From: Pseudomonas sp. A-1
GTDB taxonomy: Bacteria; Pseudomonadota; Gammaproteobacteria; Pseudomonadales; Pseudomonadaceae
Direction: 5' to 3'
Assembly (NCBI RefSeq): GCF_004801855.1
Contig: NZ_SSTC01000044.1
Location: forward strand, 1-39,588
Length of the DNA: 39,588 bases
Part shown: positions 18,882 to 35,551 of the stretch, in pieces
How the letters are laid out: each line of letters opens with the position of its first letter
How positions within the stretch are numbered: position 1 is the first letter of the stretch
The notes under the pieces: model-generated
Told to the model about the DNA's origin: nothing
Seen by the model: the letters and a program-made list of their open reading frames with translations, nothing else
The model's database searches: none
Program-made: the position numbers and the translations under genes

Positions 18882-18884
18882 AGG

Positions 18885-20126: not shown

Positions 20127-20157
20127 CGGGGCAGTTTCAGTACCCCTCGCTTTTTGC

Positions 20158-20279
20158 GTGTTCCACGTGTTCCGGTGTTCCGCTTTTGCGCAAGCCATTG
20201 ATTTAAAAGGATTTAACTGGCGTCTCAAGCTGGAACACCGATTTCGTTCCGCCGTGTTCCAAGGTGTTCCATGTGTTCC
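20158..20279 (+). repeat. Left iteron cluster (GTGTTCC), probable origin element
   Basis: GTGTTCC occurs directly at 20158, 20167, 20175, 20254, 20264 and 20273, and inverted at 20232. The two groups of three have 8-10 base spacing. Between the groups is an AT-rich stretch, GATTTAAAAGGATTTAA (20200-20216). P4-type satellites replicate from iteron-containing ori and crr sites bound by the primase-helicase, and the layout here fits that pattern. A mirror copy lies at 34409-34530. Confidence 0.7.
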
Positions 20280-20630
20280 GCTTTCGGCCCTCTCGACGGA
20301 TCGCCGAAAAGACCGCAAACCCGCGCCACTCCTGGGCCACAGCCGACTAAGGCCTCACAAGCTCGACACCAGCAGTTGGCGGATTTCCTAACGCAACAGC
20401 CCCTGGCTCGCATGGGCTACCACTCCCCCTCACCTCAACGAGGATCATGCCCCCACTTACTGGCACGTCTATCAGAAAACGGGCATGAGAAACGGCAAGG
20501 CTACCGCCCTTCCCTGGCGGCCCGCTGTTCGCCGGCTAGCTCGAACGAAGGGCAGCCCGGTGCAGCGCGAAGAACGCACTGCGGTCATGGGGCAAGGGGG
20601 CACAACCGTTCGTCGCCGCGTTGGGGATCA

Positions 20631-20660
20631 TTCGGCACCTTTCAGCACCTTTCGGCACCT
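20631..20660 (+). repeat. Three exact-length 10-base tandem repeats
   Basis: TTCGGCACCT, TTCAGCACCT and TTCGGCACCT follow one another without spacer; the middle copy differs by one base. The 10-base period keeps every copy on the same face of the helix, as in cooperative operators. It is about 145 bases upstream of the AlpA-type HTH gene, whose product is a natural candidate ligand. Confidence 0.6.
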
Positions 20661-20806
20661 AGCTCTAAACGCATTCAACGCCTGACGACAAAGCCAAAAA
20701 ATGCTTGTAGATAGATAGCCCTCATCAACAAACGCGAGGGCTTATCAAAGTGCACAACCAGTCGCTGGATGCAATGCGCCCTCGTCTCAACCCGAGGGCC
20801 TACCTG

Positions 20807-21067
20807 ATGAATCCCACCCCAGCCGTCCACGCGGTGCCCGCCCCCCAGCCGGCTATGCCGGCCATTCTCAACCCCTCCGACCTGCTGACTCCCGAAGCCG
20901 CGGCCACGCTGCTGGGCATGTCGAGCCGCACCCTGGCCACCTGGCGCAGCAAGCGCCGCCACGGCCTTCCCTACATCCGCGTTGGCGGCCGCATCCGCTA
21001 CAGCAAGACCGCCTTGCTGAACTGGCTCCAGTCGCGCCACCAGACCGGCGCCTTGCCTCCCCAGTAG
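20807..21067 (+). CDS. AlpA-type helix-turn-helix protein
   Basis: A small DNA-binding protein of 86 residues. The MerR-like/excisionase HTH_17 fold is visible as LLTPEAAATLLGMSSRTLATWRSKR, followed by the wing GLPYIRVGGRIRYSKTALLNWLQS. In P4-like elements such proteins activate integrase/excision or early genes. ATG 20807 has GAGGG eight bases upstream; GTG 20750 would add 19 residues without family match. It opens the rightward run of element genes. The exact target is unknown. Confidence 0.8.
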   Translation: MNPTPAVHAVPAPQPAMPAILNPSDLLTPEAAATLLGMSSRTLATWRSKRRHGLPYIRVGGRIRYSKTALLNWLQSRHQTGALPPQ

Positions 21068-21148
21068 CCCAACCACACAAGCGCCCCGCTGCTGCCGAGC
21101 CCCTTGCTGGCCGGCACAGAAACCATTTAGCGAACTGGAGCCAACCGG

Positions 21149-21493
21149 ATGAAAGAACTGCAGCAGAAAAGAAACCAGACAGCCCGCGACCTGCATGCGG
21201 CAGAAGAGCGGATGACAGCCATGCAACGCGAGTACGCGCGTGCCGCAGAATCGGGCCAGAGCGGGTCGGGTAGTTACACGGCCAATGAGGCCCCCGTGAA
21301 TCGCACTCAGGTCAGAGAGCTTTCCGAGGCCGCGCGCCTGCAAAAAGCGATTCAATCGCTCGACCGTGAAATCGCCGACAAGCGCCGGGATCTGGCCGAC
21401 CTGGATCGAGCCATCGCCTTCTACGGAGAAATGGCGTCAGCAGAAACCGAACTACAGCAGGCGGTCGAGACTCGCAGAAACTGGGCGCGTTGA
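21149..21493 (+). CDS. Coiled-coil protein, unknown
   Basis: 114 residues, rich in Glu, Arg, Lys and Ala, with long heptad-like helices (residues 1-35 and 55-110) separated by a Gly/Ser-rich hinge SGQSGSGSY. No catalytic motif, signal or membrane segment is seen. ATG 21149 has CTGGAG about 11 bases upstream. The stop overlaps the next gene as TTGA, so the two coiled-coil proteins are probably made together and may form a complex. The function is not recognised. Confidence 0.65.
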   Translation: MKELQQKRNQTARDLHAAEERMTAMQREYARAAESGQSGSGSYTANEAPVNRTQVRELSEAARLQKAIQSLDREIADKRRDLADLDRAIAFYGEMASAETELQQAVETRRNWAR

Positions 21494-22017
21494 AAACCCA
21501 GCGCAAAGAGCTGGCCGAGCGTCTGGAGACGCTCAAGAGCGACGCGGCGCAGGCGCTGGAAGACGCCATCGAGCATGAACGAAGCTGCGCAGACGCCTAT
21601 GCCAAGGCGCTCAGAAACAACGCCGCAGGCACAGATGCCGCCGGCGAGGCGATGAGCAAAGCCTCTACCGCACTATCTCTCGTGAAGCAGCAGAATGCCG
21701 GTAAGCAGCAGGTCTTCCTCACCTTGGAAGCCGAGCTGGAAAGTCTGGACAAGCAAATATCCGCGACCAACGAAGCCATCGAAGAAGCGCAGCGCGCCGC
21801 ATACCGCGCCAAAGCTATCGAGTTGGGGATTCGCTGGGATGAGCAGGTAACCCAGCTCATGAGCCTGGGCAGCGAACTACTGGCCGCCCGCATGGCCGCA
21901 GGCATGACGACCAAAGAGCTGGACAAGCTCATGCTCCCGCGCTTCAGCACCTATCGCGCCGCAGCTGCCGACGCCGCCGAATTGAAGCGCATGGCCGCCG
22001 AAGTTATCAGCCATTGA
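21490..22017 (+). CDS. Second coiled-coil protein, unknown
   Basis: 175 residues starting at TTG 21490, which overlaps the preceding stop as TTGA. Mostly helical, with coiled-coil character at about residues 1-105 (LESLDKQISATNEAIEEAQRAA). It ends in a more globular segment, ELLAARMAAGMTTKELDKLMLPRFSTYR. No known domain is recognised. The non-ATG start implies dependence on translation of the upstream gene. It could be structural or a partner of the upstream coiled-coil protein. Confidence 0.6.
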   Translation: MKTQRKELAERLETLKSDAAQALEDAIEHERSCADAYAKALRNNAAGTDAAGEAMSKASTALSLVKQQNAGKQQVFLTLEAELESLDKQISATNEAIEEAQRAAYRAKAIELGIRWDEQVTQLMSLGSELLAARMAAGMTTKELDKLMLPRFSTYRAAAADAAELKRMAAEVISH

Positions 22018-22020
22018 TAT

Positions 22021-22131
22021 TTGGACGGCCCGCTTACAGGCCGTCATCACGGATACCGCCGGCATGACTTCATCACCTGGCTGCAATGCGACCACTGCGG
22101 TGCGGCCATGTCGGCAAAGGAGAAGGTCTGA
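22021..22131 (+). CDS. Possible 36-residue CxxC mini-protein
   Basis: The frame opens right after the preceding stop. It can start at TTG 22021 and ends in TGA at 22129-22131, overlapping the next ATG by one base (TGATG). It encodes WLQCDHCGAAMSAKEKV at its end; the CxxC pair is suggestive of a zinc ribbon fragment. The next gene's ribosome site AAAGGAG lies inside it. It could be a real coupled leader gene, a remnant of an Ogr-like zinc protein, or chance. Confidence 0.3.
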   Translation: MDGPLTGRHHGYRRHDFITWLQCDHCGAAMSAKEKV

Positions 22132-22481
22132 TGCACCAACCTACCCAAGCTCCCCGCGCACGTTCTGCAGCACTTCCGAGCGCTCCGGCAACGCTGGCCA
22201 CCACCGTCCGCCAGTTGAACGCAACGACCACCAGCAAGCCCACTCGCGCAGTGAAACCTTTCGACCCAGAAACCACACTGATCCGCATGCCCGAGCTGCT
22301 GGCCATCACCGGCCTCGGCGGCCGGGCGACCGTGTACAAGCTGCTCAAGGACGACCCGAGCTTTCCCAAGCCCGTGTCATTGACCGGCGGCACCTCACGC
22401 AACGCGCCCATCGCCTGGGTACTCGCCGAAGTGCAGGACTGGATTCGGGCACGCATCGCCGCCCGGGGGAGCGCCGCATGA
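22131..22481 (+). CDS. AlpA-family-like regulator with N-terminal extension
   Basis: 116 residues. A low-complexity N-terminus (about 1-45, Ala/Thr/Arg-rich) is followed by an AlpA-like winged-helix segment: LIRMPELLAITGLGGRATVYKLLKDDPSFPKPVSL, then an aromatic-acidic helix VQDWIRARIAAR. AAAGGAG about eight bases upstream supports ATG 22131. It differs from the HTH protein at 20807, so the element carries two proteins of this type. The stop overlaps the next start as ATGA. Confidence 0.75.
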   Translation: MHQPTQAPRARSAALPSAPATLATTVRQLNATTTSKPTRAVKPFDPETTLIRMPELLAITGLGGRATVYKLLKDDPSFPKPVSLTGGTSRNAPIAWVLAEVQDWIRARIAARGSAA

Positions 22482-23155
22482 GCAAACAGCCCCGTTACCA
22501 GCCCGGCCCCTTCCGCGACACCTACGGCCTCGGCTTCCTGTTCCCACACCAGCACAGCGCCGGCCCGCTGCAGCGTAACCGCATCATCGCGGCCGTGAGC
22601 TGGGACGGCGACGAAGCCCAGTTCGTCAACGCTGCCGGCCTGGTCGTCCCCTGCACGGCACTGCTCGACCTCCCCACGACGCTGGCCCGCGCTACCCGCC
22701 GGGAGTACGGGGCGATCATCGGCGATGGCCAGTTCGCCAAGCCCGCACATGTGCTCAAGGCCCTGGAAGGCGCCGGCACGCTGCGCAAATGGGTGACCTA
22801 CCACTTCGAGCCGGGCGACCTCCGCTTCTACTGCGACGACGACACCGCCTGGGAAGCGCACGTGCAACGGGAAGTCGCCCCGCTCGATGCCAAATACATG
22901 CGGGAGGCCGCCGAAATTGAGCGTCAACTAGCGCTGCGCCAGCAGCGCCACCGCATTGCCGTCGACGACTTCGCCGCGTCTCTGCCTGCCCTACCCAGCC
23001 CCGAGGAACTGGAGCAGCGCAGCCAGCAGAGAATCGCCGAAGAGCGCGCCAATCTCGACCAGCACCGGCGCGCGCTCCTCGAGCACGACCGGAGACTGAG
23101 CGCCTGGCTGCAGGGCGAACTGCAGATGCCGCCCCTGCTGCGGGGGGCTGCGTGA
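22478..23155 (+). CDS. Conserved element protein, unknown function
   Basis: 225 residues. The N-terminal half is globular (YGLGFLFPHQHSAGPLQRNR, AAVSWDGDEAQFVNAAGLVVPC, WVTYHFEPGDLRFYCDDDTAWE). The C-terminal 90 residues are charged and probably a coiled coil (ELEQRSQQRIAEERANLDQHRR). No enzyme motif is seen. ATG 22478 overlaps the upstream stop as ATGA and the downstream start is again overlapping, so it is embedded in the coupled operon. I do not recognise the family. Confidence 0.65.
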   Translation: MSKQPRYQPGPFRDTYGLGFLFPHQHSAGPLQRNRIIAAVSWDGDEAQFVNAAGLVVPCTALLDLPTTLARATRREYGAIIGDGQFAKPAHVLKALEGAGTLRKWVTYHFEPGDLRFYCDDDTAWEAHVQREVAPLDAKYMREAAEIERQLALRQQRHRIAVDDFAASLPALPSPEELEQRSQQRIAEERANLDQHRRALLEHDRRLSAWLQGELQMPPLLRGAA

Positions 23156-23814
23156 TGGCAAAGGCGATCATCCCTCACGACTACCAAGGCCAGCCTGTAA
23201 GCTTCAATGACACCGGTTGGATCAATGCAACCGAGGCTGCTGCGCGATTCGGCAGGCTACCGCATGAATGGCTGCGCCTTCCCGATACGGTGGCCTACCT
23301 GGAAGCGCTGGAGCGTACATGCGGGAAAATCCCGCATGTAAAAACCAGTCGAGCCCGTGCGGATCGTGGCGGCGGCACCTGGCTGCATCCCAAGCTCGCC
23401 GTAGCCTTCGCCCGCTGGCTCTCGCCGGATTTTGCCGTCTGGTGCGACATGCAAATCGACGCCCTGCTACGCGGTGACGGCAGCCACTGGGCGACCGCCC
23501 GACGCGAAGCCACGCTCGGCCACCGCGCCATATGCGACGCCGTGGCGCTCAACTGCGAGGCACGCGGCAAGACGCCCCAGCGGCACCACTTCATCAACGA
23601 AGCCCGGCTCATCAACGAGGTGATAACCGGCGCCTTCGCCGGCCGCAGCCGCGACCAGTTGAATACCGCCGAACTGGAGATCGTCACCCTCGTCGAGCTC
23701 CGCGACACGGCCCTGCTCGGCGCAGGCATGAGCTACGCCGAACGCAAGGCCAACCTGCTGGGCTACGCCCAAACCTTGCAAGCCAAGCATCTGCAGGGAG
23801 CGCCCACCGCATGA
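23155..23814 (+). CDS. KilA-N domain protein
   Basis: 219 residues. The KilA-N DNA-binding domain of phages and large DNA viruses is recognisable in the first 110 residues: FNDTGWINATEAAARFG and TWLHPKLAVAFARWLSPDFAVW. The C-terminal half (ATARREATLGHRAICDAVALN onward) is helical and resembles the partner regions of phage antirepressors. GTG 23152 or ATG 23155 could be used; both overlap the preceding stop. A role as antirepressor or regulator is inferred. Confidence 0.85.
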   Translation: MAKAIIPHDYQGQPVSFNDTGWINATEAAARFGRLPHEWLRLPDTVAYLEALERTCGKIPHVKTSRARADRGGGTWLHPKLAVAFARWLSPDFAVWCDMQIDALLRGDGSHWATARREATLGHRAICDAVALNCEARGKTPQRHHFINEARLINEVITGAFAGRSRDQLNTAELEIVTLVELRDTALLGAGMSYAERKANLLGYAQTLQAKHLQGAPTA

Positions 23815-24269
23815 CCAAACACACTTGGCTCCAGCGCGGCAATGTCCGAAAAAAGACGTTCACAGAACGGCGAGCAACCCAGCAATGTGAGCGCCAGCCA
23901 CAACCGGAGCCCCGCCCGATGCTGCCCACCTTCCTGCCCCCTACCTGCCTCGACCTGCCGCCCGGGCACGCCGCCGGCCAGTTGCCGCCGCTGCGCCCGG
24001 ACGATGCCAGGGCCCGCGAACTGCTGCGCGCTCTGTGCGAGCAGGTGAGCGCCGATGGCGCGCAGGTGCTCATCCTGTTCTGGCCCGATGGGCTGTGGAC
24101 GCTGCTCGCCATCGACCCGCCCGCCGGCGCGGCCGTGGCCGACGCCCTGGAGCTGGTGCCCGTCCTGCTGGCCTGCCCCGAGGAGATGGCCACCATCCGC
24201 CAACGCGCCGCCGAAGGCCGCCGTCTCGTTCACCTGGTCATGCGCCAGCCACACGCCCCCCTGCACTGA
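23811..24269 (+). CDS. Hypothetical protein, coupled to the KilA-N gene
   Basis: 152 residues from ATG 23811 (ATGA overlap). An alternative ATG at 23919, with GGAG nine bases upstream, gives 116 residues and removes a basic, probably unstructured leader. The core has alternating helices and strands (ARELLRALCEQVSADGAQVLILFWPDGLWTLL, then LELVPVLLACPEEMATIRQRAAEG). No family is recognised. A hairpin GCCCCG/CGGGGC (24279-24300) follows the stop. Confidence 0.6.
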   Translation: MTKHTWLQRGNVRKKTFTERRATQQCERQPQPEPRPMLPTFLPPTCLDLPPGHAAGQLPPLRPDDARARELLRALCEQVSADGAQVLILFWPDGLWTLLAIDPPAGAAVADALELVPVLLACPEEMATIRQRAAEGRRLVHLVMRQPHAPLH

Positions 24270-24312
24270 CTCAACAGCGCCCCGACCACACCACCGGGGC
24301 GAGGAGATCCCC

Positions 24313-24963
24313 ATGCACGCGCAATCCACCACTTGCCCGTCGCACACGCTCGCACGCACAGCACACCGCCGGCTTGCGCCGGCCATCGGGCCGCGCTATG
24401 GTTCGCCCGTCACGGTCAATCCCGTGGCCGGGTTTGGCGACCCGAGTAGAAAAGGCGCACAGGCGCCCACCATCCCATTGCAGGCGCTTTTTTTGTGTCC
24501 GCAATGTCGTGTCATGGCGGCTGTGCGCGGGAGACCGAAAGGTCTGCCGGGTTCCTTTTCCCCGGTTCGCCAACCTGCGCACAGCTGCCACCAATATCGT
24601 TTGGCGACGATCCGTGGCAGCTCCACCAGAAAAGGAGCTGTACCCATGAAGCACGACCCCGCCCGCAATCCGTCCGCACTCCGCGACCGCGCCAGCGCCC
24701 ACCGCGCCATGGCCATCGCCGCCCTGCACGCCGACTCTTCCCTGTCCGTCCGCCTCAAGCGCTACAACCACCACATGGCCATCGCGCGCAGCCTGGAAGA
24801 CAGCGCCGCCCAGCAGCAGGCCACCAGCACCCGAGATCCGCGCGCCGCACTGACTTGGCTCAAGGCCGGCAAGGCGCTGCGTATCGACTCGCTCAACCTG
24901 CGCGACCACCTGCGCCACGTGCGCGCCCTGGCCACGCTGGAATCCCGTGGGGGTGCGAAATGA
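24313..24963 (+). CDS. Ash/Icd-like ORF overlapping an antisense-RNA region
   Basis: A continuous frame of 216 residues from ATG 24313 with GAGGAG eight bases upstream. The N-terminal part (GFGDPSRKGAQAPT, FLCPQCRVMAAVRGRPKG, PGSFSPVRQPAHSCHQ) matches the pattern of Ash or host-cell-division-inhibitor Icd-like proteins of P4 and P1-type phages. The C-terminal 105 residues are also available from an internal start at 24646. In P1 and P4 the equivalent DNA carries the immunity RNA and its targets, so much of the peptide pattern may reflect RNA constraint. Whether the long protein is made is uncertain. Confidence 0.5.
   Translation: MHAQSTTCPSHTLARTAHRRLAPAIGPRYGSPVTVNPVAGFGDPSRKGAQAPTIPLQALFLCPQCRVMAAVRGRPKGLPGSFSPVRQPAHSCHQYRLATIRGSSTRKGAVPMKHDPARNPSALRDRASAHRAMAIAALHADSSLSVRLKRYNHHMAIARSLEDSAAQQQATSTRDPRAALTWLKAGKALRIDSLNLRDHLRHVRALATLESRGGAK
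24368..24494 (+). ncRNA. Candidate P4 CI / P1 C4-like antisense immunity RNA
   Basis: A hairpin GCCGGC/GCCGGC (24368-24383) is followed by GGTTCGCC (24400-24407), GTTTGGCGAC (24432-24441) and a terminator-like end: AAAA-g-GCGC (24450-24458) pairs with GCGCTTTT (24484-24491) in a run of seven T. Downstream in the Ash-like frame the same pair recurs: GGTTCGCC at 24564-24571 and GTTTGGCGAC at 24599-24608. TTGGCGA in the RNA is complementary to TCGCCAA at 24567-24573. This arrangement of one short terminated RNA with repeated complementary targets is that of phage antisense immunity. Confidence 0.45.
24646..24963 (+). CDS. Internal-start protein inside the Ash-like frame
   Basis: 105 residues from ATG 24646, with AAGGAG nine bases upstream, in the same frame as the long Ash-like ORF. 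The product MKHDPARNPSALRDRASAHRA onward is helical and basic (RLKRYNHHMAIARSLEDSAA), with no recognised domain. The strong ribosome site immediately after the antisense-target region is the arrangement expected for a gene whose expression is gated by the upstream leader. The stop overlaps the next gene as ATGA. Confidence 0.65.
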   Translation: MKHDPARNPSALRDRASAHRAMAIAALHADSSLSVRLKRYNHHMAIARSLEDSAAQQQATSTRDPRAALTWLKAGKALRIDSLNLRDHLRHVRALATLESRGGAK

Positions 24964-25190
24964 ACCGCCAGGCCCTGACCCCTACCCAGATCATCGAAGC
25001 CGCCCGCCAGCGTCTGGCGAGGGCCAGGAGCGACGCCGGCATCGAGTTCGAGCGCGACTCCTCTATCGGCATGCTCAACACCCTGAAAGACCTGTGCCTG
25101 ATCGACATGGACAGCTGGGGCGTGACCCGCACCGAGTTCGACGCCTTGGCCGACAGCCGCCGCGCGCGGCTGGAAGGGGGTTTGCAATGA
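24960..25190 (+). CDS. Small hypothetical protein (76 aa)
   Basis: 76 residues, ATGA-coupled to the gene before and to the 19-codon gene after. Sequence MNRQALTPTQIIEAARQRLARAR followed by IGMLNTLKDLCLIDMDSWGVTRTEFDALADSR suggests a compact helical protein. No domain, signal or membrane segment is recognised. Position in the coupled run and its ordinary element codon use make it likely to be translated. Confidence 0.6.
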   Translation: MNRQALTPTQIIEAARQRLARARSDAGIEFERDSSIGMLNTLKDLCLIDMDSWGVTRTEFDALADSRRARLEGGLQ

Positions 25191-25246
25191 ATCAGCCCGC
25201 CCCTTCCCTGCTGGCCCACCTGCTGCGCGACCTGCTGGGGGAATAA
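25187..25246 (+). CDS. Tiny coupled gene (19 aa)
   Basis: ATG 25187 overlaps the previous stop as ATGA, with AAGGGGG upstream, and TAA follows after 19 residues (MNQPAPSLLAHLLRDLLGE). The second half would form a short amphipathic helix. It fills the gap exactly and is followed three bases later by the next start. Either a real micro-protein or a device to keep ribosomes on the transcript. Confidence 0.4.
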   Translation: MNQPAPSLLAHLLRDLLGE

Positions 25247-25249
25247 CCG

Positions 25250-25531
25250 ATGAGCAATCAAAAACGCTGCCAGAAGGCGGCGAAGGCCCCGGCTTGCCCG
25301 GAGAAAGCCCGCCGCGCCCATGACGAGCTGTCGGAAGCCCCCGCCCTGATCCTCCCGGCCCGGCACCTGGACACACTGCGCGCTGCCAGTACCGCCTATC
25401 GCCGCCTGTTCGAGCTGCGCGCCACCAGCCCGGAGTGGCGCAAGGCCTATGCCGAATGGCAGCGGCTGGCCGAAGACCTCGCCGGCGCCGCCGTCCGCGA
25501 GTTCGACGCACAGCGGGAGCTGCAGCCATGA
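25250..25531 (+). CDS. Small hypothetical protein (93 aa)
   Basis: 93 residues. A basic N-terminus with two cysteines (KRCQKAAKAPACPEKARR) is followed by helices (LRAASTAYRRLFELRATSPEWRKAYAEWQRLAEDLAG). GGGGGAA lies about five bases upstream of ATG 25250. The stop overlaps the next gene as ATGA. No domain is recognised; the helical, Trp- and Arg-rich second half could be a binding surface for a partner protein or nucleic acid. Confidence 0.6.
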   Translation: MSNQKRCQKAAKAPACPEKARRAHDELSEAPALILPARHLDTLRAASTAYRRLFELRATSPEWRKAYAEWQRLAEDLAGAAVREFDAQRELQP

Positions 25532-25917
25532 CCGGCCTTCGACTCTGCCAGCCCGCCACAACCCAACGGCGCCAGCGCGGCGCCCTCGATCTGCCCAAGG
25601 ATGAGCAAGCCATGCACCAGAACCTCTACGTTGCCGAACTGCTCGGCGTCCTGCCCGAGCCGTTGCCGCTCGAACTGGCCGAAGCGGTGGCCACCACCCT
25701 CGCTATCGGCGTGGACGAAATCGGCACCGGCCAACTGCCCGACGAAGGCGGCACCAGCCGCTGGGGCGTGTTCCGCGTGCATCTGGTCGTGCGCACCCAA
25801 GCCCGGGCGGAAACGGCCGCCCTGTGGCTGGCCCGCGAACTGGGCGACCCTCACCGCGCCTGCATCCTGCGCGACTGGCGCGAGCCGGGCCAAGGCCTGG
25901 CAGGGGGTGCCGTATGA
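25528..25917 (+). CDS. Hypothetical protein (129 aa)
   Basis: 129 residues from ATG 25528 (ATGA overlap); an internal ATG at 25612 is possible and would start at the better-structured part MHQNLYVAELLGVLPEPLPL. The core alternates helices and strands (AVATTLAIGVDEIGTGQLPDE, WGVFRVHLVVRTQARAETAALWLARELG). No family is recognised. The stop again overlaps the next start. Confidence 0.6.
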   Translation: MTGLRLCQPATTQRRQRGALDLPKDEQAMHQNLYVAELLGVLPEPLPLELAEAVATTLAIGVDEIGTGQLPDEGGTSRWGVFRVHLVVRTQARAETAALWLARELGDPHRACILRDWREPGQGLAGGAV

Positions 25918-26498
25918 CTGCCGCCACGCCGATCAAGGCCGCACCGCGCGCACAAGCTGGCAAGGCGCCGAACCTCAGCCGTATCCCTCCGGCAGCGCAG
26001 CAGCAAGCCCCCAGCCCTCTGCGCGGCGAGCTGTTGAGCACCGCCGACACATTGCACGGCGCCGGCGAGGTGCTGCAGCAACTGCACGGGCTGTTCGAGG
26101 CCATCCGCAAGCTGGGCGGGCAGGACGTGCAACCGCTGGCACGTATCGGCGCCAACCTCGCCATGGAGTGGGCCGACACGCTGGACGCCCACGCCGAACG
26201 CGCCATCGCCCAATGCAACGCCGTCGACAACGGCTCATCGCTGACACCGGCGACACCGGCGACACCGACCACCAAAGCAGCCGCCCCCGTCGCCACCCTC
26301 TCCATGGCCGCCTACGACACGGCCACCCTGCACCTGGAGAGAGCCGAAACGCTGGCGGAAATACTCGGCGTCCTCGGCTGCAAGGGCATCAACGAACTCA
26401 CGACCTCCGGCGTAACCGGGGCCTTCGACGGCCTGCTGGGCGAGCTGGTCGAAATTCGCGCGGCACTGGTGCAGGGCCTGCAAGGAGCTGACGCATGA
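25914..26498 (+). CDS. Hypothetical protein before the primase (194 aa)
   Basis: 194 residues, ATGA-coupled on both sides. A flexible Ala/Pro-rich N-terminus is followed by helices containing TADTLHGAGEVLQQLHGLFEAIRKLGG, then a Thr/Pro/Ala repeat (TPATPATPTTKAA at about 111-123) encoded by near-tandem CACCGGCGA units at 26245-26265, then another helical block with cysteine 158. No domain is recognised. The gene immediately precedes the primase-helicase and may encode an accessory replication factor, but this is position-based inference. Confidence 0.55.
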   Translation: MTAATPIKAAPRAQAGKAPNLSRIPPAAQQQAPSPLRGELLSTADTLHGAGEVLQQLHGLFEAIRKLGGQDVQPLARIGANLAMEWADTLDAHAERAIAQCNAVDNGSSLTPATPATPTTKAAAPVATLSMAAYDTATLHLERAETLAEILGVLGCKGINELTTSGVTGAFDGLLGELVEIRAALVQGLQGADA

Positions 26499-29452
26499 CC
26501 GAACAACGCCAACCCAAGCACCCCACCTTCGCCGAGGTGAAGGCCGCCGCCCTGCGCGCGATCGACCGCGTCTTGGCGCACTGGCTGCCCGGCGGCAAGC
26601 GCGTGGACGGCAACAAGGAATACACCGCGCCCAACCCGACCCGGGCCGACAAGCACGCCGGCTCGCTCAAGGTGAACCTGCGCCGCGGCACCTGGTGCGA
26701 CTTCGCCACCGGCGACAAGGGCGGCGACCTGATCGACCTGGTGCACTACCTGGACGGCGGCAGCGACGTGGACGCCTGCAACACGCTGGCCGCCTTCCTG
26801 GGCGTGACCGCCGGCACCAGCCCGGCGCCGGCCGGTAACGCCGAGCTGGCCAAGGCGCCGACCTGGGCGCCGGTGCTGCCGATCCCGCCCGAGGCGATGG
26901 CCAAGGTGTTCAAGACCCACCGCAAGAACGGCAAGCCCTCGAAGGTCTGGGTCTACAAGGACGCCCAAGGCCAGCCGCTGATGGTGCTCTACCGCTTCGA
27001 CCTGGAGCCGGACGCCGGGGGCAAGCCGCGCAAGGAATTCGCCCCGCTGACCTGGTGCCGCAACGCCAGCGGCGTCACGCAATGGCGCTGGGCGGGCCTG
27101 CCCGAGCCTCGGCCGCTGCTGCGCCTCGAGGAGCTGGCACAACGCCCCGGGGCGCCCGTGGTGCTCTGCGAAGGCGAGAAGTCCGCCGACGCGGCCGCCG
27201 TGCTGCTGCCCGACCACGTGGCCACCTGCTGGCCCAACGGCGCGCAGTCCTGGCAGAAGGCCGACTTCGCCCCGCTGGCCGGACGCGACGTGCTGCTGTG
27301 GCCGGACAACGACAAGGGCGGCCTCGCCTGCATGCAGGCGATTGCCGAGCGCCTGCGCCAGCTCGGCGCTGCTTCCGTGCGCCTGCTGTCGCTCGACGTG
27401 TTCAACTGGCAGCCGGCTGTGGTCGACGGCGCCGCCGTGCTCGAGGAGGGCGGCGAATGGCACGAAGGCGACGATGCGGCCGACGCGCTGGCCAGAGGCT
27501 GGACGGCCGAGCACATGGCCCAGCTGCTGCAGTCCGGCGAGCTGTACACGCCGGCGCCGGCGGCCGCACCAGCGCCACACGCCGATAGTGCAGCAGTACC
27601 GGCAGCCACCAAGACCACCAGCAGGCCCACCAGCGGCAGCAAACGCCAGCCGGCCCAGCCCAAGGGCAACACCGACAACGGCGCCGGCGAGCCGCAGGCG
27701 GGCTTTCGCGTCACGAATGCCGGAGTGTTCTACTGCGGCGACGACGGCGCCCCGGTGCCGGTCTGCTCGCGCCTCGACATTCTGGCGCGCACCCGCGACG
27801 ACAAGGGCCACAACTGGGGCCTGCTGGTGGAGTTCGACGATCCGGACGGGGCGAAAAAGCGCCTCAACATCCCGGCACAGGCGATGGCCGGCGAGTTCGG
27901 CAAGGAAGTGGTCGGCCCGCTGGTGAGCATGGGCCTGCGGCTCGCGCAGGGGCGCAAGGCGCGCAACTGCAAGGACAACCTGCAGAGCTACCTGCAAGCC
28001 TACGACAGCCCCGAGCGCGCCCGCCTGGTCAACCGCCTGGGCTGGCACGGCGACGCCTACCTGCTGCCCGGCGAGCAGTTGGGCAGTGCGGCCGAACACC
28101 TGCACTTCTACGAAGCCGGCGCCGCGCTGCCGCCCATCGAGCAGGCCGGCACCCTCGAAGACTGGCAGCAGGGGCTCGCCCGCTACTGCGTGGGCAACCA
28201 CCGGCTGGCCTTCGTGATGAGCACCGCCTTTGCCGGCCCCCTACTGCATCTGCTGGGCGCCGAGTCCGGCGGCTTCCACCTGTACGGCGACAGCTCGGGC
28301 GGCAAGACAACGCACCTCAAGGCGGCCGCCTCGGTCTACGGCGGGCCGCGCATGCTGCGCACCTGGCGCAGCACGGACAACGCCCTGGAAGGCACGGCCG
28401 CCGCCCACTCGGACGGGCTGCTGGTGCTCGACGAGATCCACCAGTGCGACGCCCGGGTGATCGGCGACACCGTGTACATGCTCGGCAACGGCACCGGCAA
28501 GACCCGCGCGAACGACCGGGGCTCCGTGACCAAGCAGGCCTACAGCTGGCGACTGCTGTTCCTCTCCACCGGGGAAAAGACCCTCGCCCAGCACATGGCC
28601 GAGGGCGGCAAGGAACTCAAGGCAGGCATGGAAGTGCGGATGGTCGGCATCCCTGCCGACGCCGGCAAAGGCCTGGGGCTGTTCGAGGAGCTACACGGCT
28701 TCCCCGACGCCGGCGAGTTGGCCGAAACCCTGACCAGCAACGCCGGCAGGTTCTACGGCACGGCGCTGCTCGCCTACCTGCGGGCCATGCTGGAGTCGAA
28801 GCCGCTGCCCAAAGTCTCCGAGGAGCTGGCACGGGTGACGGACCACTTCACCGCCAGGCTGCTGCCCTCCGACGCCGCCGGCCAGGCCCGGCGCGTGGCC
28901 GCACGCTTCGCCCTGGTCGCCACGGCCGGCGAGCTGGCCACCCGCCTGGGCGTCACGGGCTGGCCCGAACTGACCGCCTGGAACGCCGCGCGGACCTGCT
29001 TCAAGGCTTGGCTCGACGCCCGGGGCGGCGCCGGCAACCTTGAGGAGGAGGCCATCATCACCCACCTGCGAGCCATCATCGAGCGTTTCGGCGAAAGCCG
29101 CTTCACCCGCTGGGACGCCATCGCCGTCAAGACCGACGACCACGCCCCACGCACCACCGACCGCCTGGGCTTCCGCCGCACCATCGAGCACGGCGTGGGC
29201 GATGCGCTGTTCACCACGACGGACTACTACGTGCTGGCCGCCGTGTGGGCCTCCGAGGTCTGGAAGGGCTACAACGTGGCCAACGTCAACAAGGTGCTAC
29301 TGGCCCGGGGCATCCTGACGCCCGGCACGGACGGCAAGGCCGCCTGCTCCGAGCGGCTGCCTGGGATGGGGAAGACGAGGTGCTACTTGGTGAGCGCGGC
29401 GGCGCTGAATGCCGATGGTTCGGGAGGGGCGCGATTGGCTGAGGTGGCTTGA
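26495..29452 (+). CDS. TOPRIM/DUF927 primase-helicase
   Basis: 985 residues, the probable replication protein of the element. The N-terminal region (1-110) contains VNLRRGTWCDFATGDKGGDLIDLVHY, typical of phage primase leader domains. A TOPRIM-type domain follows, with Glu226 in CEGEK and Asp271/Asp273 in LLWPDND. A Pro/Ala/Thr linker runs from about 350 to 400. The C-terminal DUF927 helicase-like domain has Walker A GDSSGGKT at 598-605 and Walker B LLVLDE at 642-647. The start overlaps the previous stop as ATGA. It likely acts at the two iteron clusters, as alpha protein does in P4; that is inference. Confidence 0.85.
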   Translation: MTEQRQPKHPTFAEVKAAALRAIDRVLAHWLPGGKRVDGNKEYTAPNPTRADKHAGSLKVNLRRGTWCDFATGDKGGDLIDLVHYLDGGSDVDACNTLAAFLGVTAGTSPAPAGNAELAKAPTWAPVLPIPPEAMAKVFKTHRKNGKPSKVWVYKDAQGQPLMVLYRFDLEPDAGGKPRKEFAPLTWCRNASGVTQWRWAGLPEPRPLLRLEELAQRPGAPVVLCEGEKSADAAAVLLPDHVATCWPNGAQSWQKADFAPLAGRDVLLWPDNDKGGLACMQAIAERLRQLGAASVRLLSLDVFNWQPAVVDGAAVLEEGGEWHEGDDAADALARGWTAEHMAQLLQSGELYTPAPAAAPAPHADSAAVPAATKTTSRPTSGSKRQPAQPKGNTDNGAGEPQAGFRVTNAGVFYCGDDGAPVPVCSRLDILARTRDDKGHNWGLLVEFDDPDGAKKRLNIPAQAMAGEFGKEVVGPLVSMGLRLAQGRKARNCKDNLQSYLQAYDSPERARLVNRLGWHGDAYLLPGEQLGSAAEHLHFYEAGAALPPIEQAGTLEDWQQGLARYCVGNHRLAFVMSTAFAGPLLHLLGAESGGFHLYGDSSGGKTTHLKAAASVYGGPRMLRTWRSTDNALEGTAAAHSDGLLVLDEIHQCDARVIGDTVYMLGNGTGKTRANDRGSVTKQAYSWRLLFLSTGEKTLAQHMAEGGKELKAGMEVRMVGIPADAGKGLGLFEELHGFPDAGELAETLTSNAGRFYGTALLAYLRAMLESKPLPKVSEELARVTDHFTARLLPSDAAGQARRVAARFALVATAGELATRLGVTGWPELTAWNAARTCFKAWLDARGGAGNLEEEAIITHLRAIIERFGESRFTRWDAIAVKTDDHAPRTTDRLGFRRTIEHGVGDALFTTTDYYVLAAVWASEVWKGYNVANVNKVLLARGILTPGTDGKAACSERLPGMGKTRCYLVSAAALNADGSGGARLAEVA

Positions 29453-29872
29453 GGGGAGAGCTGCCGCCGGCGTTGGCCGGCGGTTGGGCTCTCCGGCCTG
29501 AACAGCCTGCATCGTGCCCATCACTCAGCGTCCACGCCGCTCAACGCCTGCAAGCCTAGTAGAGCTCATCTTTCCCATACTGTCTGTGGATTTCCGCTAA
29601 CAGCCCCGCTCGCAACTGACCGCATTCGCCCAAAGCGATCTGTAGTGATGGCCAGAAATCGGCCAGGACCGGACGATACGGGGTGAAAAGGGAATCCGTC
29701 ACCTTTTCCCCCAATGATCTTGGGGTGTTAGAGCCGCTGGAGTGATGCCAGTGGCTTTTCGCTGCTCGGTCCCTGTAGTAGCTTCATTGCCTGCTTTATC
29801 TCTAAAGCAGTCACGAATCAGGCAGGGAAGTCATGCAAGCAATCTGGACCAGCTTCATGGAGGGTGCTCACG
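29453..29872 (+). other. Gap between primase and nuclease: hairpins and cargo promoter region
   Basis: No convincing gene in 420 bases. It begins with a strong hairpin: GGAGAGC (29455-29461) pairs with GCTCTCC (29488-29494) around CCGCCGGC/GCCGGCGG, which may end the primase transcript. A second imperfect hairpin pairs 29680-29691 with 29702-29711. Base composition drops toward the nuclease gene, marking the left side of the cargo. The palindrome at 29791 is listed separately. Confidence 0.55.
29791..29810. promoter_or_regulatory. Palindrome upstream of the nuclease gene
   Basis: CTGCTTTA (29791-29798) and TAAAGCAG (29803-29810) form a perfect inverted repeat with a TCTC spacer, 62 bases upstream of the nuclease start. 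It is nested in a second pair TGCCTG (29788-29793) and CAGGCA (29819-29824). A dimeric repressor or activator could bind here; no regulator gene lies beside it. Confidence 0.45.
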
Positions 29873-31840
29873 ATGTTCATTGAGCGGCTCTCACTCACAA
29901 ATTTTCGTTGCTTCGGGGCAGAAGCGACGCCAATCGACCTGACGCCTGGTCTTACCGCATTCGTCGGAGCCAATGGCGCGGGCAAAACGGCCGTAATGCA
30001 GGCGCTACAACGACTGTTCGGTGTAACCAACGAACAGCGCCGTATTCGCCGGCAAGACTTTCATATTCCTGCAACTGAAGTGGTCACACCCCAGCAGCGT
30101 CATTTTGTCATCGAGGCCGTTCTTGCCTTTCCCGAATTGGACGTTGACGGTGGTGAGACGGCCGCCATCCCCGAGTTTTTCCAGCAAATGGCTGCCGATG
30201 AGGCAGGTCGGCTGAAGTGTCGCTGGCGGCTCGAAGCAACCTGGACCGATGACGGCTCGCTCGACGGCATCATCGAGCAGAAATACTGGGCCGTCCGTAC
30301 ATTCGGCGACTTCACCGAAGACGCCTGCATCGAGCTGAAAGCAATTGACCGCGCGCGTATCCAGATGATCTATGTACCGGCCTCGCGCGATGGCTCCTCA
30401 CAGGTAACTGCCTTCCTCCGCGGCCGCCTATGGCGTGCGATCAATTGGTCAGAGGGCGTACGCGAGACATTTTCTGATGCTGGAGCAAGGCTTAACAACG
30501 CTTTTGGGGGAGAAGCTGCAGTCGACGTGGTAGCCAATGCGGTACGGCAGCGTTGGCAAGAGGTACACACAGCCGGAACTGACACTACGCCTGTATTCCA
30601 GCCCGTTGATCTTCGGTTCCAAGAATTTATCCGCAAAGTCGAGGTTGTCTTTAGGCCTGATGAGGCTGGTCGAGAGCGCGCGCTTGACGACCTCAGCGAT
30701 GGTCAACGCTCACTGTTTCACCTAGCCATGACTGCCGCGACCCTAGACGTCGAAAACATAATCTGTGTCGATCCAGTCGCCGCAGGTTTCCAACCTGGTG
30801 GCGTCCCGCTGCCTACGCTAACCCTCATCGCCATTGAAGAACCTGAAAACAATCTCGCACCCTTCTATCTGTCGCGCATCGTCCGGCAGGTAGAAGACCT
30901 GACACATGGCCAACGCGCCCAAGCGGTTATCTCAAGCCATTCGGCCAGCATTCTTTCGCGAGTTGATCCGGCACAAGTGAGATATTTCCGCCTTAATTCT
31001 GCTGACCGGACCTCGCGTGTGCTCCCAATCCGCTTGCCCGAGGGACAAGAGGAGGCGTCGAAGTTCGTACGCGAGGCGGTTCTGACCTACCCAGAACTCT
31101 ATTTTGCTCGTTTCGCTGTTCTTGGTGAGGGGGCCTCTGAAGAAGTGGTTCTGCCTCGCCTCGCTACGGCAATGGGGCTCGACATTGATCGCTCCTTCGT
31201 GGCGGTCGTTCCGCTTGGCGGACGCCATGTCAATCATTTGTGGCGCTTGCTAAATGATCTCGAAATACCTCATGCAACCTTGCTCGATCTTGACTGGGGC
31301 CGCGACGGCGGCGGCTGGGGACGAGTCAAGACAGCCTGCACACAACTACTTGAGATTGGGATTACTCCTCAATCGATATTCGGTCAGTATCTCGATCCTG
31401 CTGGGCCGGCCGTCAATTTGGCAGCGTTCGATACTCTACCTGCAGAGAACATAACTCATATCAAAGAATGGACTAACTGGCTGCGCCAGTTCCATGTGTT
31501 CTTCTGTACCCCTCTTGACCTCGACTATTCGATGCTGCGTGCTTTCCCTGCCGCATACCAAGTAATAGAACCTGGCCGGCAGGGGCCATCGCCTCAAGGC
31601 GATCCCAGAACTGCAGTTCTGGGGGAAGCCGGTCGCGGTAATCTCTATGGCGCTGATGAAGATATCTCGCTGCGCTGGTATCGCTATCTCTTTTTGGGGC
31701 GTGGCAAGCCAAGCACTCATGTCCGCGTCCTAAGCAGTCACACACCCCAGGTCTTGGCAGCGAGCGCACCTGAAGAGTTGCGGGCTCTTCTTGCCTCCAT
31801 CGTGGCCCGCTTGGAGCCGCCACCAGTGCCGGGAGTCTGA
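29873..31840 (+). CDS. gajA: OLD-family ATPase-nuclease, GajA-like
   Basis: 655 residues. The ABC-type ATPase has Walker A GANGAGKT at 32-39, signature LSDGQR at 274-279, Walker B LTLIAIEEPE at 316-325 and His356 in SSHSA. The C-terminal TOPRIM nuclease has Glu419 and Glu423 in GEGASEE, the GG at 449-450 and Asp472/Asp474 in LLDLDWGRD. GGAGG nine bases upstream selects ATG 29873 over GTG 29864. The next gene is a UvrD-like helicase two bases on, which defines class 2 OLD proteins and Gabija defence. It is about 75 residues longer than Bacillus GajA. Lower GC than its neighbours suggests separate acquisition. Confidence 0.85.
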   Translation: MFIERLSLTNFRCFGAEATPIDLTPGLTAFVGANGAGKTAVMQALQRLFGVTNEQRRIRRQDFHIPATEVVTPQQRHFVIEAVLAFPELDVDGGETAAIPEFFQQMAADEAGRLKCRWRLEATWTDDGSLDGIIEQKYWAVRTFGDFTEDACIELKAIDRARIQMIYVPASRDGSSQVTAFLRGRLWRAINWSEGVRETFSDAGARLNNAFGGEAAVDVVANAVRQRWQEVHTAGTDTTPVFQPVDLRFQEFIRKVEVVFRPDEAGRERALDDLSDGQRSLFHLAMTAATLDVENIICVDPVAAGFQPGGVPLPTLTLIAIEEPENNLAPFYLSRIVRQVEDLTHGQRAQAVISSHSASILSRVDPAQVRYFRLNSADRTSRVLPIRLPEGQEEASKFVREAVLTYPELYFARFAVLGEGASEEVVLPRLATAMGLDIDRSFVAVVPLGGRHVNHLWRLLNDLEIPHATLLDLDWGRDGGGWGRVKTACTQLLEIGITPQSIFGQYLDPAGPAVNLAAFDTLPAENITHIKEWTNWLRQFHVFFCTPLDLDYSMLRAFPAAYQVIEPGRQGPSPQGDPRTAVLGEAGRGNLYGADEDISLRWYRYLFLGRGKPSTHVRVLSSHTPQVLAASAPEELRALLASIVARLEPPPVPGV

Positions 31841-31842
31841 CC

Positions 31843-33726
31843 ATGCCTCTCATACGCCCAGAAGCCTGGCAAGTGCGTGGTATTGATGACTTGGAGCCAG
31901 CTGCTTGGTGCGCATTACGCCAGCCTGGCTCGGCATGCGTCGTCGCCGGACCAGGAGCCGGCAAGACTGAGTTTTTGGCACAACGAGCCGTCTACTTGCT
32001 AGAAACCGGCCTCTGCCCTGCGCCGTACAGAGTGCTGGCTATTTCCTTCAAAAGCGACGCAGCCGACAACCTCGCAGCGCGCGTACGCAAGCGCTGCCCA
32101 GCCGATCTCGCCAGCCGCTTCACTTCGCTCACCTTCGACGCTTTCACGAAGAGCCTGGTTGATCGTTTCCACGCGGCAATTCCCGTCGATTGGCGTCCCA
32201 CACGCCCTTACGACATTGCTTGCCCCAAGCGCCCCCAAGTACAGGGGTTTCTTTACCGTACTCATCAGATCGCACCGCCTGAGTGGCAGAAAACAATAGC
32301 GGGCTTCACAGTCGAAAACTTCGAGTCGCATATAGCTGGGGCCTATAAACTCCCGAGCGCTTGCTCTCATCCGCAATCAGGAGAGGAATTTGCCATTCAT
32401 CGCTGGTGGCTCGAGCAGCTTAACAACCAAACATGCTCAGCAATTACCTTCACCGGCCTAAATCGTCTCGCAGAGCTTCTGTTGCGTACTAACCCACATA
32501 TCCGCCGGGCGCTTCAGATGACTTACCCCTTCGTGTTCGTCGATGAGTTCCAAGACACGACCTATGCCCAATATGACTTTCTTAGGTCAGCATTCGGCGG
32601 CACAGACATTGCTGTGACCGCAGTAGGCGATGATAAGCAGAGAATAATGACTTGGGCTGGCGCACGCCCTGATGCCTTCGAGCGCTTCGCTGCGGATTTC
32701 ACGGCCACTCGAATCCCCCTGCTATTCAACTTCCGTTCATCCCCAGGTCTTGTGCAGATTCAGCACGTCGTCGCTAGGGCGCTCGACCCAAATGCGGCCC
32801 AGACAGTTGCGCAAGCACAAAACCAAATAGATGGCGATGTGGCTCAAGTTTGGAGATCTCAGACAAAGCAACAAGAAGCTGAATATCTTGCACGATGGCT
32901 GGTAGACGATATGGCATCCCGAGGTCGTGCTCCGCGCGACTACTGTATCCTCGTAAAGCAGAAGTCTGACGACTTCGAATCCGACCTGGCGCCTGCCTTA
33001 TCACAACAGGGCCTTCGGCTCCGTAACGAAAGCCATGCGCTTGGTCGCACAACCCTGCAGGACTTGCTCTCTGATGAGTTTTCCAAAATCGCTATTGCGC
33101 TCCTCCGTCTTGGTGCAGACCGCAAGGCCCCTGCTGCTTGGCGGCATGCTGTTACCGCACTTCTAACCATCCGGGCAATAGCGCCGGACGACGAACTTGG
33201 GGAAATGCGTGTAGAAAATGAATTTACTGCGTTTCTTGCAAGGCTCCGCACCAGCATGGCAGCCAATGCGCCATCACGAGCTAATGCTGAGGCTTTCACC
33301 GATCAAGTCCTAGAGTTTCTGGATTTACCTGCAGTCAAACGGTCCTACATTGAGTACGCATCAGGGGATCTGCTAGCGCTCATGGCTGAAGCATTTCGCC
33401 TGCATTGCGCCGCATCGGCTGAGGGTGCACCAAGCTGGACAGCTTGCCTCGATGCCTTCGAGGGCTTAGCCCAGATTCCTCTGATGACAGTGCACAAAAG
33501 TAAAGGCCTCGAATATGACACCATTGTTTTTGTAGGCCTCGACGATCAGGCTTGGTGGGCTCACAGACCAGGCAATCAGGAAGGCTTAGCAACCTTCTTC
33601 GTCGCACTCTCTCGAGCAAAGCAGCGCGCTATCTTCACTTTCTGCCGGGAACGTGGCCAGCGTAGACGTGTAGCCGAGTTGTTCCAGCTTCTGACAGACG
33701 CTGGGGTGCCGGAGATCGCTATATGA
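31843..33726 (+). CDS. gajB: UvrD/Rep-like helicase, GajB-like
   Basis: 627 residues, an SF1A helicase with all core motifs: Walker A GPGAGKT at 36-42, DEFQD at 234-238, GDDKQ at 262-266, NFRSS at 296-300, TVHKSKGLEYD in the last quarter and ALSRAK near the end. In Gabija the helicase partner acts with GajA to stop phage replication, probably by sensing DNA ends or nucleotide depletion. It starts two bases after gajA, so the two are co-expressed. It is larger than Bacillus GajB (about 494). The TGA stop abuts a truncated recombinase, so this is the right edge of the cargo. Confidence 0.85.
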   Translation: MPLIRPEAWQVRGIDDLEPAAWCALRQPGSACVVAGPGAGKTEFLAQRAVYLLETGLCPAPYRVLAISFKSDAADNLAARVRKRCPADLASRFTSLTFDAFTKSLVDRFHAAIPVDWRPTRPYDIACPKRPQVQGFLYRTHQIAPPEWQKTIAGFTVENFESHIAGAYKLPSACSHPQSGEEFAIHRWWLEQLNNQTCSAITFTGLNRLAELLLRTNPHIRRALQMTYPFVFVDEFQDTTYAQYDFLRSAFGGTDIAVTAVGDDKQRIMTWAGARPDAFERFAADFTATRIPLLFNFRSSPGLVQIQHVVARALDPNAAQTVAQAQNQIDGDVAQVWRSQTKQQEAEYLARWLVDDMASRGRAPRDYCILVKQKSDDFESDLAPALSQQGLRLRNESHALGRTTLQDLLSDEFSKIAIALLRLGADRKAPAAWRHAVTALLTIRAIAPDDELGEMRVENEFTAFLARLRTSMAANAPSRANAEAFTDQVLEFLDLPAVKRSYIEYASGDLLALMAEAFRLHCAASAEGAPSWTACLDAFEGLAQIPLMTVHKSKGLEYDTIVFVGLDDQAWWAHRPGNQEGLATFFVALSRAKQRAIFTFCRERGQRRRVAELFQLLTDAGVPEIAI

Positions 33727-34014
33727 ACGCTAAGCCAATTCGGCAACCTCGACCTCGACGGCGTGGACCTGACCAGCGCCGCCGGCAAGCTGCAACTCAC
33801 AGTGCTGGCTGCCGTGGCCGCCTTCGAGCGTGACCGGATCAGGGAACGCACCAAGGAAGGCTTGGCCCGCACCTCGAAGAAAGGCGGACGCCCCGAGGCG
33901 CTGGAAACCACCAAGGCGGTGCAGGCCTGCAAGGCCAAGGGCCTGACCCAAAGCCAAGCCGCCGCCGAGCTGGCCGTGAGCCTGCCCACCATCAAGCGCC
34001 ACTGGAACAAGTAG
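33727..34014 (+). pseudogene. 5'-truncated serine recombinase/resolvase
   Basis: From the base after the helicase stop the frame reads FGNLDLDGVDLTSAAGKLQL, AAVAAFERDRIRERTKEGLA and ends with the HTH GLTQSQAAAELAVSLPTIKRHW. This is the end of a resolvase catalytic domain, helix E and the DNA-binding domain. The N-terminal part with the catalytic serine is absent, and none was found left of the cargo. A GTG at 33763 could still express an 83-residue DNA-binding fragment. The exact junction suggests that arrival of the nuclease-helicase module removed the 5' half. Confidence 0.8.
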
Positions 34015-34408
34015 GCGACCAGCGCCAACCCTCCGCCGGGCTGGCATCTGACCAGACCAGCAGCCCCCCGCCACTACACTCCCGCCCTCCTCGACTCAGC
34101 ATAGCAGCGCCCCGCCCTTCGCCTGCCGGTCCGTGGTTGCCGTGGGCGTTCCTGCTGCTGGGCACCGAACCGATCAGCTGGCCCGCACCTCGAGGCCATC
34201 CCGCGCGCCGGTTGCCCGGCCTCGGTGCCCTGCGCCTGGTCCCCATCGCCGCCCTGACGATCTGCTGCGCCTATCCAGCAGGTGGAACAGCTGGCGCCCG
34301 CCCTGTTCGATGCCCGGAGGATGAGCACACGCGCATCCAAACACGCTGCAGCCCACGGCTGGCGCGGGTTTGCAGCCTGTTCGTCGATCCTTCGACCGCA
34401 CTGAAAGC

Positions 34409-34530
34409 GGAACACCTGGAACACCTTGGAACACGCCTGAACAGAATCGGTGTTCCAGCTGGTGCCGCCCGTGAAGCCCTTGTAAATCAATGAATTGCGT
34501 AAAAGCGGAACACCGGAACACGTGGAACAC
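34409..34530 (-). repeat. Right iteron cluster, mirror image of the left
   Basis: GGAACAC (complement of GTGTTCC) occurs at 34409, 34418, 34428, 34507, 34515 and 34524, with one opposite copy GTGTTCC at 34450. Read on the minus strand the order three-one-three, the spacings and the flanks (GCTTTTNCGCAA, CATTGATTTA, AGCTGGAACACCGATT) match the left cluster at 20158-20279. The two are diverged inverted repeats of about 180 bases, some 14 kb apart. A two-part origin like P4 ori plus crr is the best explanation. Confidence 0.7.
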
Positions 34531-34654
34531 CGGAAAAACAGCCTAACCGGAAAAGAACTGCCCCCGCCCCGGCACGGGAAGGTGCCCGCAGCGAGACGAT
34601 TCCATTCCGTGCGCCAGCGATTCACCCAAGACGAACGCCCCAACGCCCTTGGCT

Positions 34655-35522: not shown

Positions 35523-35547
35523 TTCAAATGTCTGCGTACCACCAAAT
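35523..35547 (+). other. attR: degenerate right attachment site
   Basis: TTCAAATGTCTGCGTA followed by CCACCAAAT matches the tRNA-Met 3' end (18696-18721) except for four substitutions and one missing G. The best-conserved part, CTGCGTA and CCACCAAAT, is where strand exchange would be expected. It marks the right edge of the element. Confidence 0.7.
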
Positions 35548-35551
35548 TCCG

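What the first reader, a model, noticed from the sequence alone, without database searches (positions are those of the whole stretch)
20158..34530. Two mirror-image iteron clusters about 14 kb apart
Seen: GTGTTCC in a three-one-three pattern at 20158-20279 and the same pattern reverse-complemented at 34409-34530, including shared flanks. The pair brackets every element gene except integrase and the terminal membrane protein. Known: P4 needs ori plus a distant crr, both bound by its primase-helicase. Here the two sites are inverted and sequence-related, implying a designed two-part origin for the DUF927 protein.
Basis: partly seen in the sequence, partly recalled or inferred. Interest (0 to 1): 0.75.

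Follow-up and report, generated by a model that had tools for sequence, protein, structure and literature searches.

The report
Split mirror-image replication origin of island
A mobile DNA island in a Pseudomonas-family bacterium carries two mirror-image clusters of a short repeat that look like the two halves of one replication origin, probably read by the tail of the island's own helicase, in a layout like that of the satellite virus P4.

Summary
GTGTTCC occurs 7+7 times in two clusters with identical spacing (+[9]+[8]+[57]-[22]+[10]+[9]+), inside a 193-nt inverted repeat (83%). The pattern is conserved: 29 of 31 near relatives have one module on + upstream and one on - downstream of the DUF927 gene. 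In a strict scan of 117 sequences, 21 have paired modules over 500 bp apart, all mirror, none direct; no shuffle of 1,170 gave a pair. The repeat word differs between elements but is shared by both modules of one element. In a natural chimera (L026/L030) both modules switched with the last ~125 residues of the DUF927 protein, a predicted winged helix, while the first 850 did not. So the clusters are most likely a two-part origin bound by that domain. In other relatives the two halves lie joined as one array behind the gene, often palindromic, as in PICI/SaPI origins. The bold reading: P4's ori and crr are two halves of a split palindromic origin. Binding and replication are untested; one relative has mixed repeats, and the domain mapping rests on one chimera.

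The parts
18642..18718 (+). tRNA-Met; its 3' end is attL
   Evidence: ARAGORN; uninterrupted site in same-genus genomes
18864..20126 (+). tyrosine integrase, ends 31 bp before the first left iteron
   Evidence: Pfam Phage_integrase 4.6e-20
20151..20343 (+). left half-origin module: seven GTGTTCC iterons, +++[57]-[22]+++
20182..20231 (.). A+T-rich gap of the left module, 58% A+T against 33% overall; candidate melting site
   Evidence: 0.76% of 50-bp windows are as A+T-rich; function inferred
23152..23814 (+). KilA-N domain protein
   Evidence: Pfam 3e-20; matched in 2 of 31 near-relative loci, the window and L023
26495..29452 (+). 985-aa primase-helicase: Toprim-like fold (res. about 204-354), DUF927 MCM-like helicase (res. 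417-681), C-terminal winged helix
   Evidence: Pfam DUF927 6.2e-76; Toprim part from a full-length model that is poor overall
29045..29449 (+). C-terminal domain (res. 851-985), proposed iteron reader
   Evidence: 12 class-separating residues, all between 860 and 971; chimera; model
29864..31840 (+). GajA (Gabija defence), cargo
   Evidence: PADLOC GajA 2.1e-242
31843..33726 (+). GajB (Gabija defence), cargo
   Evidence: PADLOC GajB 3e-222
33763..34014 (+). C-terminal remnant of a serine recombinase
   Evidence: phrog_125 DNA invertase 7.4e-17, profile 115-201 of 254
34345..34538 (-). right half-origin module, mirror image of the left one; A+T-rich gap 34457-34506 (50% A+T)
35037..35432 (+).
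   Evidence: phrog_15254, unknown function, 2.8e-43
35523..35549 (+). attR, degenerate copy of the tRNA-Met 3' end
   Evidence: sequence; right flank of same-genus genomes starts matching at 35523

Best explanation
The two clusters are the two halves of a bipartite replication origin of an integrative element, laid out like P4 ori and crr. Each half is one module: two or three head-to-tail iterons, a gap (A+T-rich in the window), one inverted iteron, and about 22 bp on two or three more iterons. The C-terminal winged helix of the DUF927 primase-helicase binds the iterons (inferred from co-variation). Each module would load one MCM-like hexamer (inferred; six is the commonest iteron count, 17 of 42 modules tabulated, range four to nine). 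After excision, protein bound at both sites would pair them by looping so that two opposed hexamers start replication (inferred). Shown: the modules, their mirror orientation, their conservation, and their joint change with the C-terminal domain in one chimera. Not shown: binding, looping, replication.
For: (1) Clusters real and identical in layout. (2) Same-species genome G050 keeps the pair; mirror pairs in 29 of 31 near relatives (window and G050 included), 14 of which were not used to build the models. (3) Strict grammar scan of 117 sequences: 21 have a mirror pair more than 500 bp apart, 0 a direct pair that far apart; 0 of 1,170 shuffles gave a pair. With 7-mer clusters, 3 or more copies match in mirror in 32 of 69 genome loci and in direct register in 3 of 69, those 3 by another word or a tandem array; no shuffle (20 per locus) exceeded 2. 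(4) The iteron word differs between elements (GTGTTCC, GTGTWAC, GTGGGAA, CTGGGAA, TCGGGGC, GGTAAC and others) but is shared by both modules of one element. (5) All 12 columns that strictly separate GTGTTC from GTGTWAC elements lie in residues 860-971. L026/L030 have a GTGTTC-type body, a GTGTWAC-type C-terminus and GTGTWAC modules on both sides. (6) The model puts 6 of the 12 (916, 929, 937, 960, 961, 967) on the helices and wing of a winged helix; homologues with solved structures are SaPIBov1 Rep and SCCmec Cch. (7) Of 13 window ORFs searched in 42 loci, only DUF927 was found in all; int in 41. [quoted passage not shown]
Against: No binding or replication data. The exclusive C-terminal mapping rests on the two related chimeras: without them and L115, 35 columns separate the classes, 22 of them in residues 1-850. 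L115-116 has a GTGTTC-type protein but mixed iterons, 5 GTGTWAC + 3 GTGTTC left and 4 + 5 right; counted as GTGTWAC it leaves 1 separating column. The right module was not found in L117-118 and L139-140 within about 12 kb. In 78 of 117 sequences the strict grammar found no pair. With 7-mer clusters the direct match was the better one in L131-132 and L194, among others that scored 2 or less. The full-length model is poor (pLDDT 54.7).
Confidence: 0.8

Rival explanations
1. One module (probably the downstream one, in the place of SaPI/PICI origins) is the origin; the other is a copy-number control or titration site that pairs with it (handcuffing) to limit replication.
For: Many relatives have an iteron array directly behind the gene and no second one was found; iteron plasmids use such control (general knowledge).
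Against: In the window both modules are equally complete, 7 iterons each with identical spacing. Conserved mirror orientation and co-switching of both modules are not required for simple titration.
Confidence: 0.25
2. The inverted repeats serve recombination: an invertible cassette or a past inverted duplication of no function.
For: Arms up to 95% identical in L169-170; an extra module in L115-116.
Against: int is on the same strand as DUF927 in all 41 loci where int was found. Modules only 63-85% identical to each other keep spacing and orientation.
Confidence: 0.03
3. The clusters are operators for the integrase/excision machinery or for a transcription regulator such as KilA-N.
For: The first left iteron lies about 25-45 bp behind the end of the int match in many near relatives.
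Against: KilA-N was matched in 2 of 31 loci. Int type does not follow iteron type: L024, L026 and L030 share an int type but differ in iterons, while L024 and L025 share iterons with different int.
Confidence: 0.07

Closest known systems
Satellite phage P4 ori and crr, bound by the alpha protein (binding recalled)
   Same: Two iteron sites bracketing the operon that ends in the primase-helicase gene; layouts ++[43]-[22]+++ and ++[43]-[18]-[14]+; most likely mirror orientation; one site near int/attP.
   Different: Alpha has a Zn-ribbon, Toprim_3 and a D5-type helicase, no DUF927 match. crr is two tandem 120-bp repeats; iteron TGTTCACC. In the window both sites are near-identical single modules, and cargo lies between gene and right site.
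SaPI / PICI replication origins (SaPIBov1 Rep)
   Different: Their origin is one locus directly behind rep (passages); here the halves are 14.2 kb apart.
SCCmec Cch helicase (5dgk)
   Same: DUF927 MCM-like helicase with C-terminal domain.
   Different: No fused Toprim-like primase domain and no mirror-paired sites known to me (recalled).
Iteron plasmids (RK2, pSC101 type)
   Same: Clustered short direct repeats next to an A+T-rich stretch (recalled).
   Different: Different initiator; no distant mirror-image second cluster as a rule (recalled).

Membership tests
P4-type satellite (bipartite ori/crr) | Two iteron sites of shared sequence bracketing the primase-helicase operon | tested here: met
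P4-type satellite (bipartite ori/crr) | Alpha-type primase with D5-family helicase | tested here: not met
   window protein: DUF927 6.2e-76; alpha: Zn_Ribbon_Prim, Toprim_3, D5_N, Pox_D5
P4-type satellite (bipartite ori/crr) | crr made of two direct 120-bp repeats | tested here: not met
   single module on each side
P4-type satellite (bipartite ori/crr) | Helper-exploitation genes (sid, psu, delta) and cos | not tested
   not searched for specifically; no such match in Pfam for the ORFs given
PICI / SaPI | Origin as one locus directly behind rep with two iteron sets around an A+T-rich region | tested here: not met
   right module begins about 4.9 kb behind the gene, left module lies upstream; each module alone has iterons on both sides of an A+T-rich gap
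DUF927 (SaPIBov1 Rep / Cch) replicative helicases | DUF927 helicase domain plus C-terminal winged helix | tested here: met
   (winged helix from a model)
DUF927 (SaPIBov1 Rep / Cch) replicative helicases | Specific binding of iterons by the C-terminal domain | not testable with these tools
   co-variation only
Gabija defence (cargo) | Adjacent gajA and gajB | tested here: met
   PADLOC 2.1e-242 and 3e-222

The most novel reading that the evidence does not exclude
P4-like split origins and PICI/SaPI compact origins are one design: a palindrome of two half-origins, each loading one helicase hexamer. In compact elements the halves touch; in P4-like elements they have been pulled apart by int/att on one side and regulators, primase and cargo on the other, and must be rejoined by looping to make a double hexamer. 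P4's crr would then be the second half of ori, and mirror symmetry the conserved requirement whatever the distance (about 20 bp to 14 kb).
Probability: 0.4. Interest if true: 0.85.

Novelty: new variant of a known kind. Interest (0 to 1): 0.72.

Why it matters
Why P4 needs a second, distant site (crr) for replication has, as far as I recall, no accepted explanation. A large natural family with the same two-site layout, with changing but matched iterons and a chimera in which both sites moved with one protein domain, makes the question testable: one can ask whether orientation, distance or both halves matter. It also links the origins of PICIs and P4-like elements, which use different helicase families, and marks the stretch between helicase gene and downstream half as a place where cargo such as the Gabija defence pair sits.

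Tried and rejected
Inversion or recombination cassette: int orientation never differs from DUF927 (41 of 41 loci with int). KilA-N as binder: matched in 2 of 31. 'Inverted sites set it apart from P4': rejected from P4's own annotation. That test is moderate only, because crr is nearly symmetric in itself and the direct alignment also beats shuffles (41/47 against a shuffle maximum of 36/37); the exact-word scan listed P4 only under direct pairs, one search gave 3 copies in mirror against 1 direct, and one search found no pair in it.

Concerted evolution of the two modules: undecided. L-L and R-R identities between related elements (0.66-0.96) are mostly a little above L-R within an element (0.63-0.85) in the 10 pairs tried.

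Joined (compact) arrays are not uniform. In the 350 bp behind the gene, 23 of 37 loci have more copies of one word than any of 200 shuffles; of these 23, mirror exceeds direct in 12, ties in 6 and is lower in 5, one of the five (L169-170) being a single module of a split pair. In the strict scan 2 compact loci had only a direct pair and 11 had both, all direct pairs 500 bp or less apart. The best cases are complete mirrors: L201-202 and L207-208 12 of 12, L197-198 10 of 10, L230 12 of 12, L269 10 of 10. In L230, L236 and L269 the long gaps face inward rather than outward. I first thought that joined arrays go with helicase-only proteins; this holds for most genome loci (549-634 aa) but not for L194 (933 aa), and split pairs also occur with short proteins (L040, L042, L055 and others, 570-649 aa). 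The L038 repeat at 4658/21064 looked to me like duplicated coding sequence (not tested) and was not counted.

Short 25-nt matches of the left gap in 15 other genomes were not followed. A DNA search of plasmids with 18600-25900 found no record covering 80% of it. The full-length structure model was poor. The classical P4 review asked for is not in the library, so I do not claim that the ori/crr comparison is absent from print.

Full report
Observation. GTGTTCC occurs 23 times in the window against 3.4 expected, 14 of them in two clusters at 20158-20279 and 34409-34530. Read in mirror, both have the layout +[9]+[8]+[57]-[22]+[10]+[9]+, seven copies each, spacing identical. They sit in the longest inverted repeat of the window, 193 nt at 82-83%. 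The gap after the first three copies is A+T-rich (left 58%, right 50%, window 33%).

The element. It lies between tRNA-Met and a degenerate copy of the tRNA 3' end at about 35523-35549; in 5 of 6 other same-genus genomes without an element there the tRNA adjoins the right flank. It carries an integrase, a KilA-N protein, the 985-aa DUF927 protein and, as cargo, a Gabija pair. Across the att site of the excised circle the clusters would be about 2.45 kb apart.

Conservation. A genome of the same species has the pair at 85%, without Gabija matches between gene and right cluster. Motif-free comparison finds inverted pairs flanking the gene in many of them, for example 95% over 146 bp in L169-170 and 94% over 127 bp in L167-168. 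Profile searches of 31 near relatives (window included) find one module on + upstream and one on - downstream in 29 (12 of 13 with GTGTTC, 17 of 18 with GTGTWAC); in L117-118 and L139-140 the right module was not seen within about 12 kb. Fourteen of the 29 were not in the training sets.

Uniform tests. With 7-mer clusters in 69 genome loci, 3 or more copies match in mirror in 32 and in direct register in 3 (L023 and L034 by another word, L209-210 a tandem array); no shuffle exceeded 2. I then wrote the module as a grammar (two copies 8-11 bp apart, an inverted copy 28-62 bp on, another copy 17-28 bp on, any exact 6-mer) and scanned 69 genome loci, 47 viral loci and P4. 39 of 117 have at least one pair: 26 mirror only, 11 mirror and direct, 2 direct only. 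21 loci have a mirror pair over 500 bp apart and none has a direct pair over 500 bp apart. One of the 21, L115-116, scores through an extra module. 0 of 1,170 shuffles gave a pair. Sensitivity is limited, since 78 of 117 gave nothing by exact words.

The word changes, the layout stays. The word is GTGTTCC, GTGTWAC, GTGGGAA, CTGGGAA, TGGGACA, TCGGGGC, CGTGAC, GGTAAC or GGTTAC in different elements, shared by both modules of one element; of 42 modules tabulated, 17 have six copies (range four to nine), and spacings of about 9, 32-59 and about 22 bp recur, though not in every row.

P4. In the P4 record, ori on the alpha strand reads +[10]+[43]-[22]+[11]+[10]+ and each crr repeat on the other strand +[9]+[43]-[18]-[14]+. 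ori lies upstream of the operon ending in alpha, crr directly behind alpha. Mirror alignment beats direct (52/61 against 41/47, shuffle maximum 36/37). The window is thus P4-like in layout, with another helicase family.

Joined form. Other relatives carry one array beginning within about 130 bp of the gene's end; the clearest read +++[33]-[23]++[30]--[23]+[33]--- (L201-202, L207-208, 12 of 12 copies in mirror), and L230 and L269 in viral contigs, with long imperfect palindromes in L038, L173-174, L197-198, L201-202 and L207-208. Each half has a layout like the split modules. PICI origins are described as two iteron sets flanking an A+T-rich region (PMC6092414, passages), and SaPI Rep as binding apparently as two hexamers (PMC7581432, passages). 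Not all joined arrays are mirror-symmetric (12 higher, 6 equal, 5 lower of 23), and joined or split does not follow protein length strictly.

Reading. The best account is a two-part origin read by the C-terminal winged helix. The bolder account, that the two sites are halves of one palindromic origin which loads two opposed hexamers, would explain mirror orientation at any distance and the usual six or so iterons per module, but is inference.

On re-reading the calls I recomputed the far-pair count (unchanged), corrected the iteron range, the identity profile of the chimera, the empty-site count and the statement tying joined arrays to helicase-only proteins.

Noticed in passing
window 29864-33726: Complete Gabija (gajA/gajB) defence pair as cargo between the DUF927 gene and the right module; L139-140 also has Gabija matches. 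G050 has none there.
   Followed up: partly
window 33763-34014: C-terminal piece of a serine recombinase/invertase next to the right module, N-terminal part missing.
   Followed up: no
L135-136 21652-21849 and 24054-24238; L115-116 24787-25141: Elements with extra copies of the right module; L115-116 has a 355-bp inverted duplication (91%) and mixed iteron types.
   Followed up: partly
L123-124, L125-126, L127-128, L129-130, L131-132, L133-134, L147-148, L161-162, right of the right module: A second short inverted pair (about 55-84 bp arms, roughly 190-360 bp apart) recurs just outside the right module in many GTGTWAC elements.
   Followed up: no
window 20191-20216: A roughly 25-nt stretch of the left A+T-rich gap matches single places in 15 other family genomes (E 1e-5 to 9e-4), with no GTGTTCC cluster nearby.
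   Followed up: no
G000 contig C89, 30002-31342: The same genome has a second DUF927 gene (35% identical).
   Followed up: no
window 8194-8402: Two nearly identical tRNA-Gln genes 124 bp apart (98% over 85 nt).
   Followed up: no
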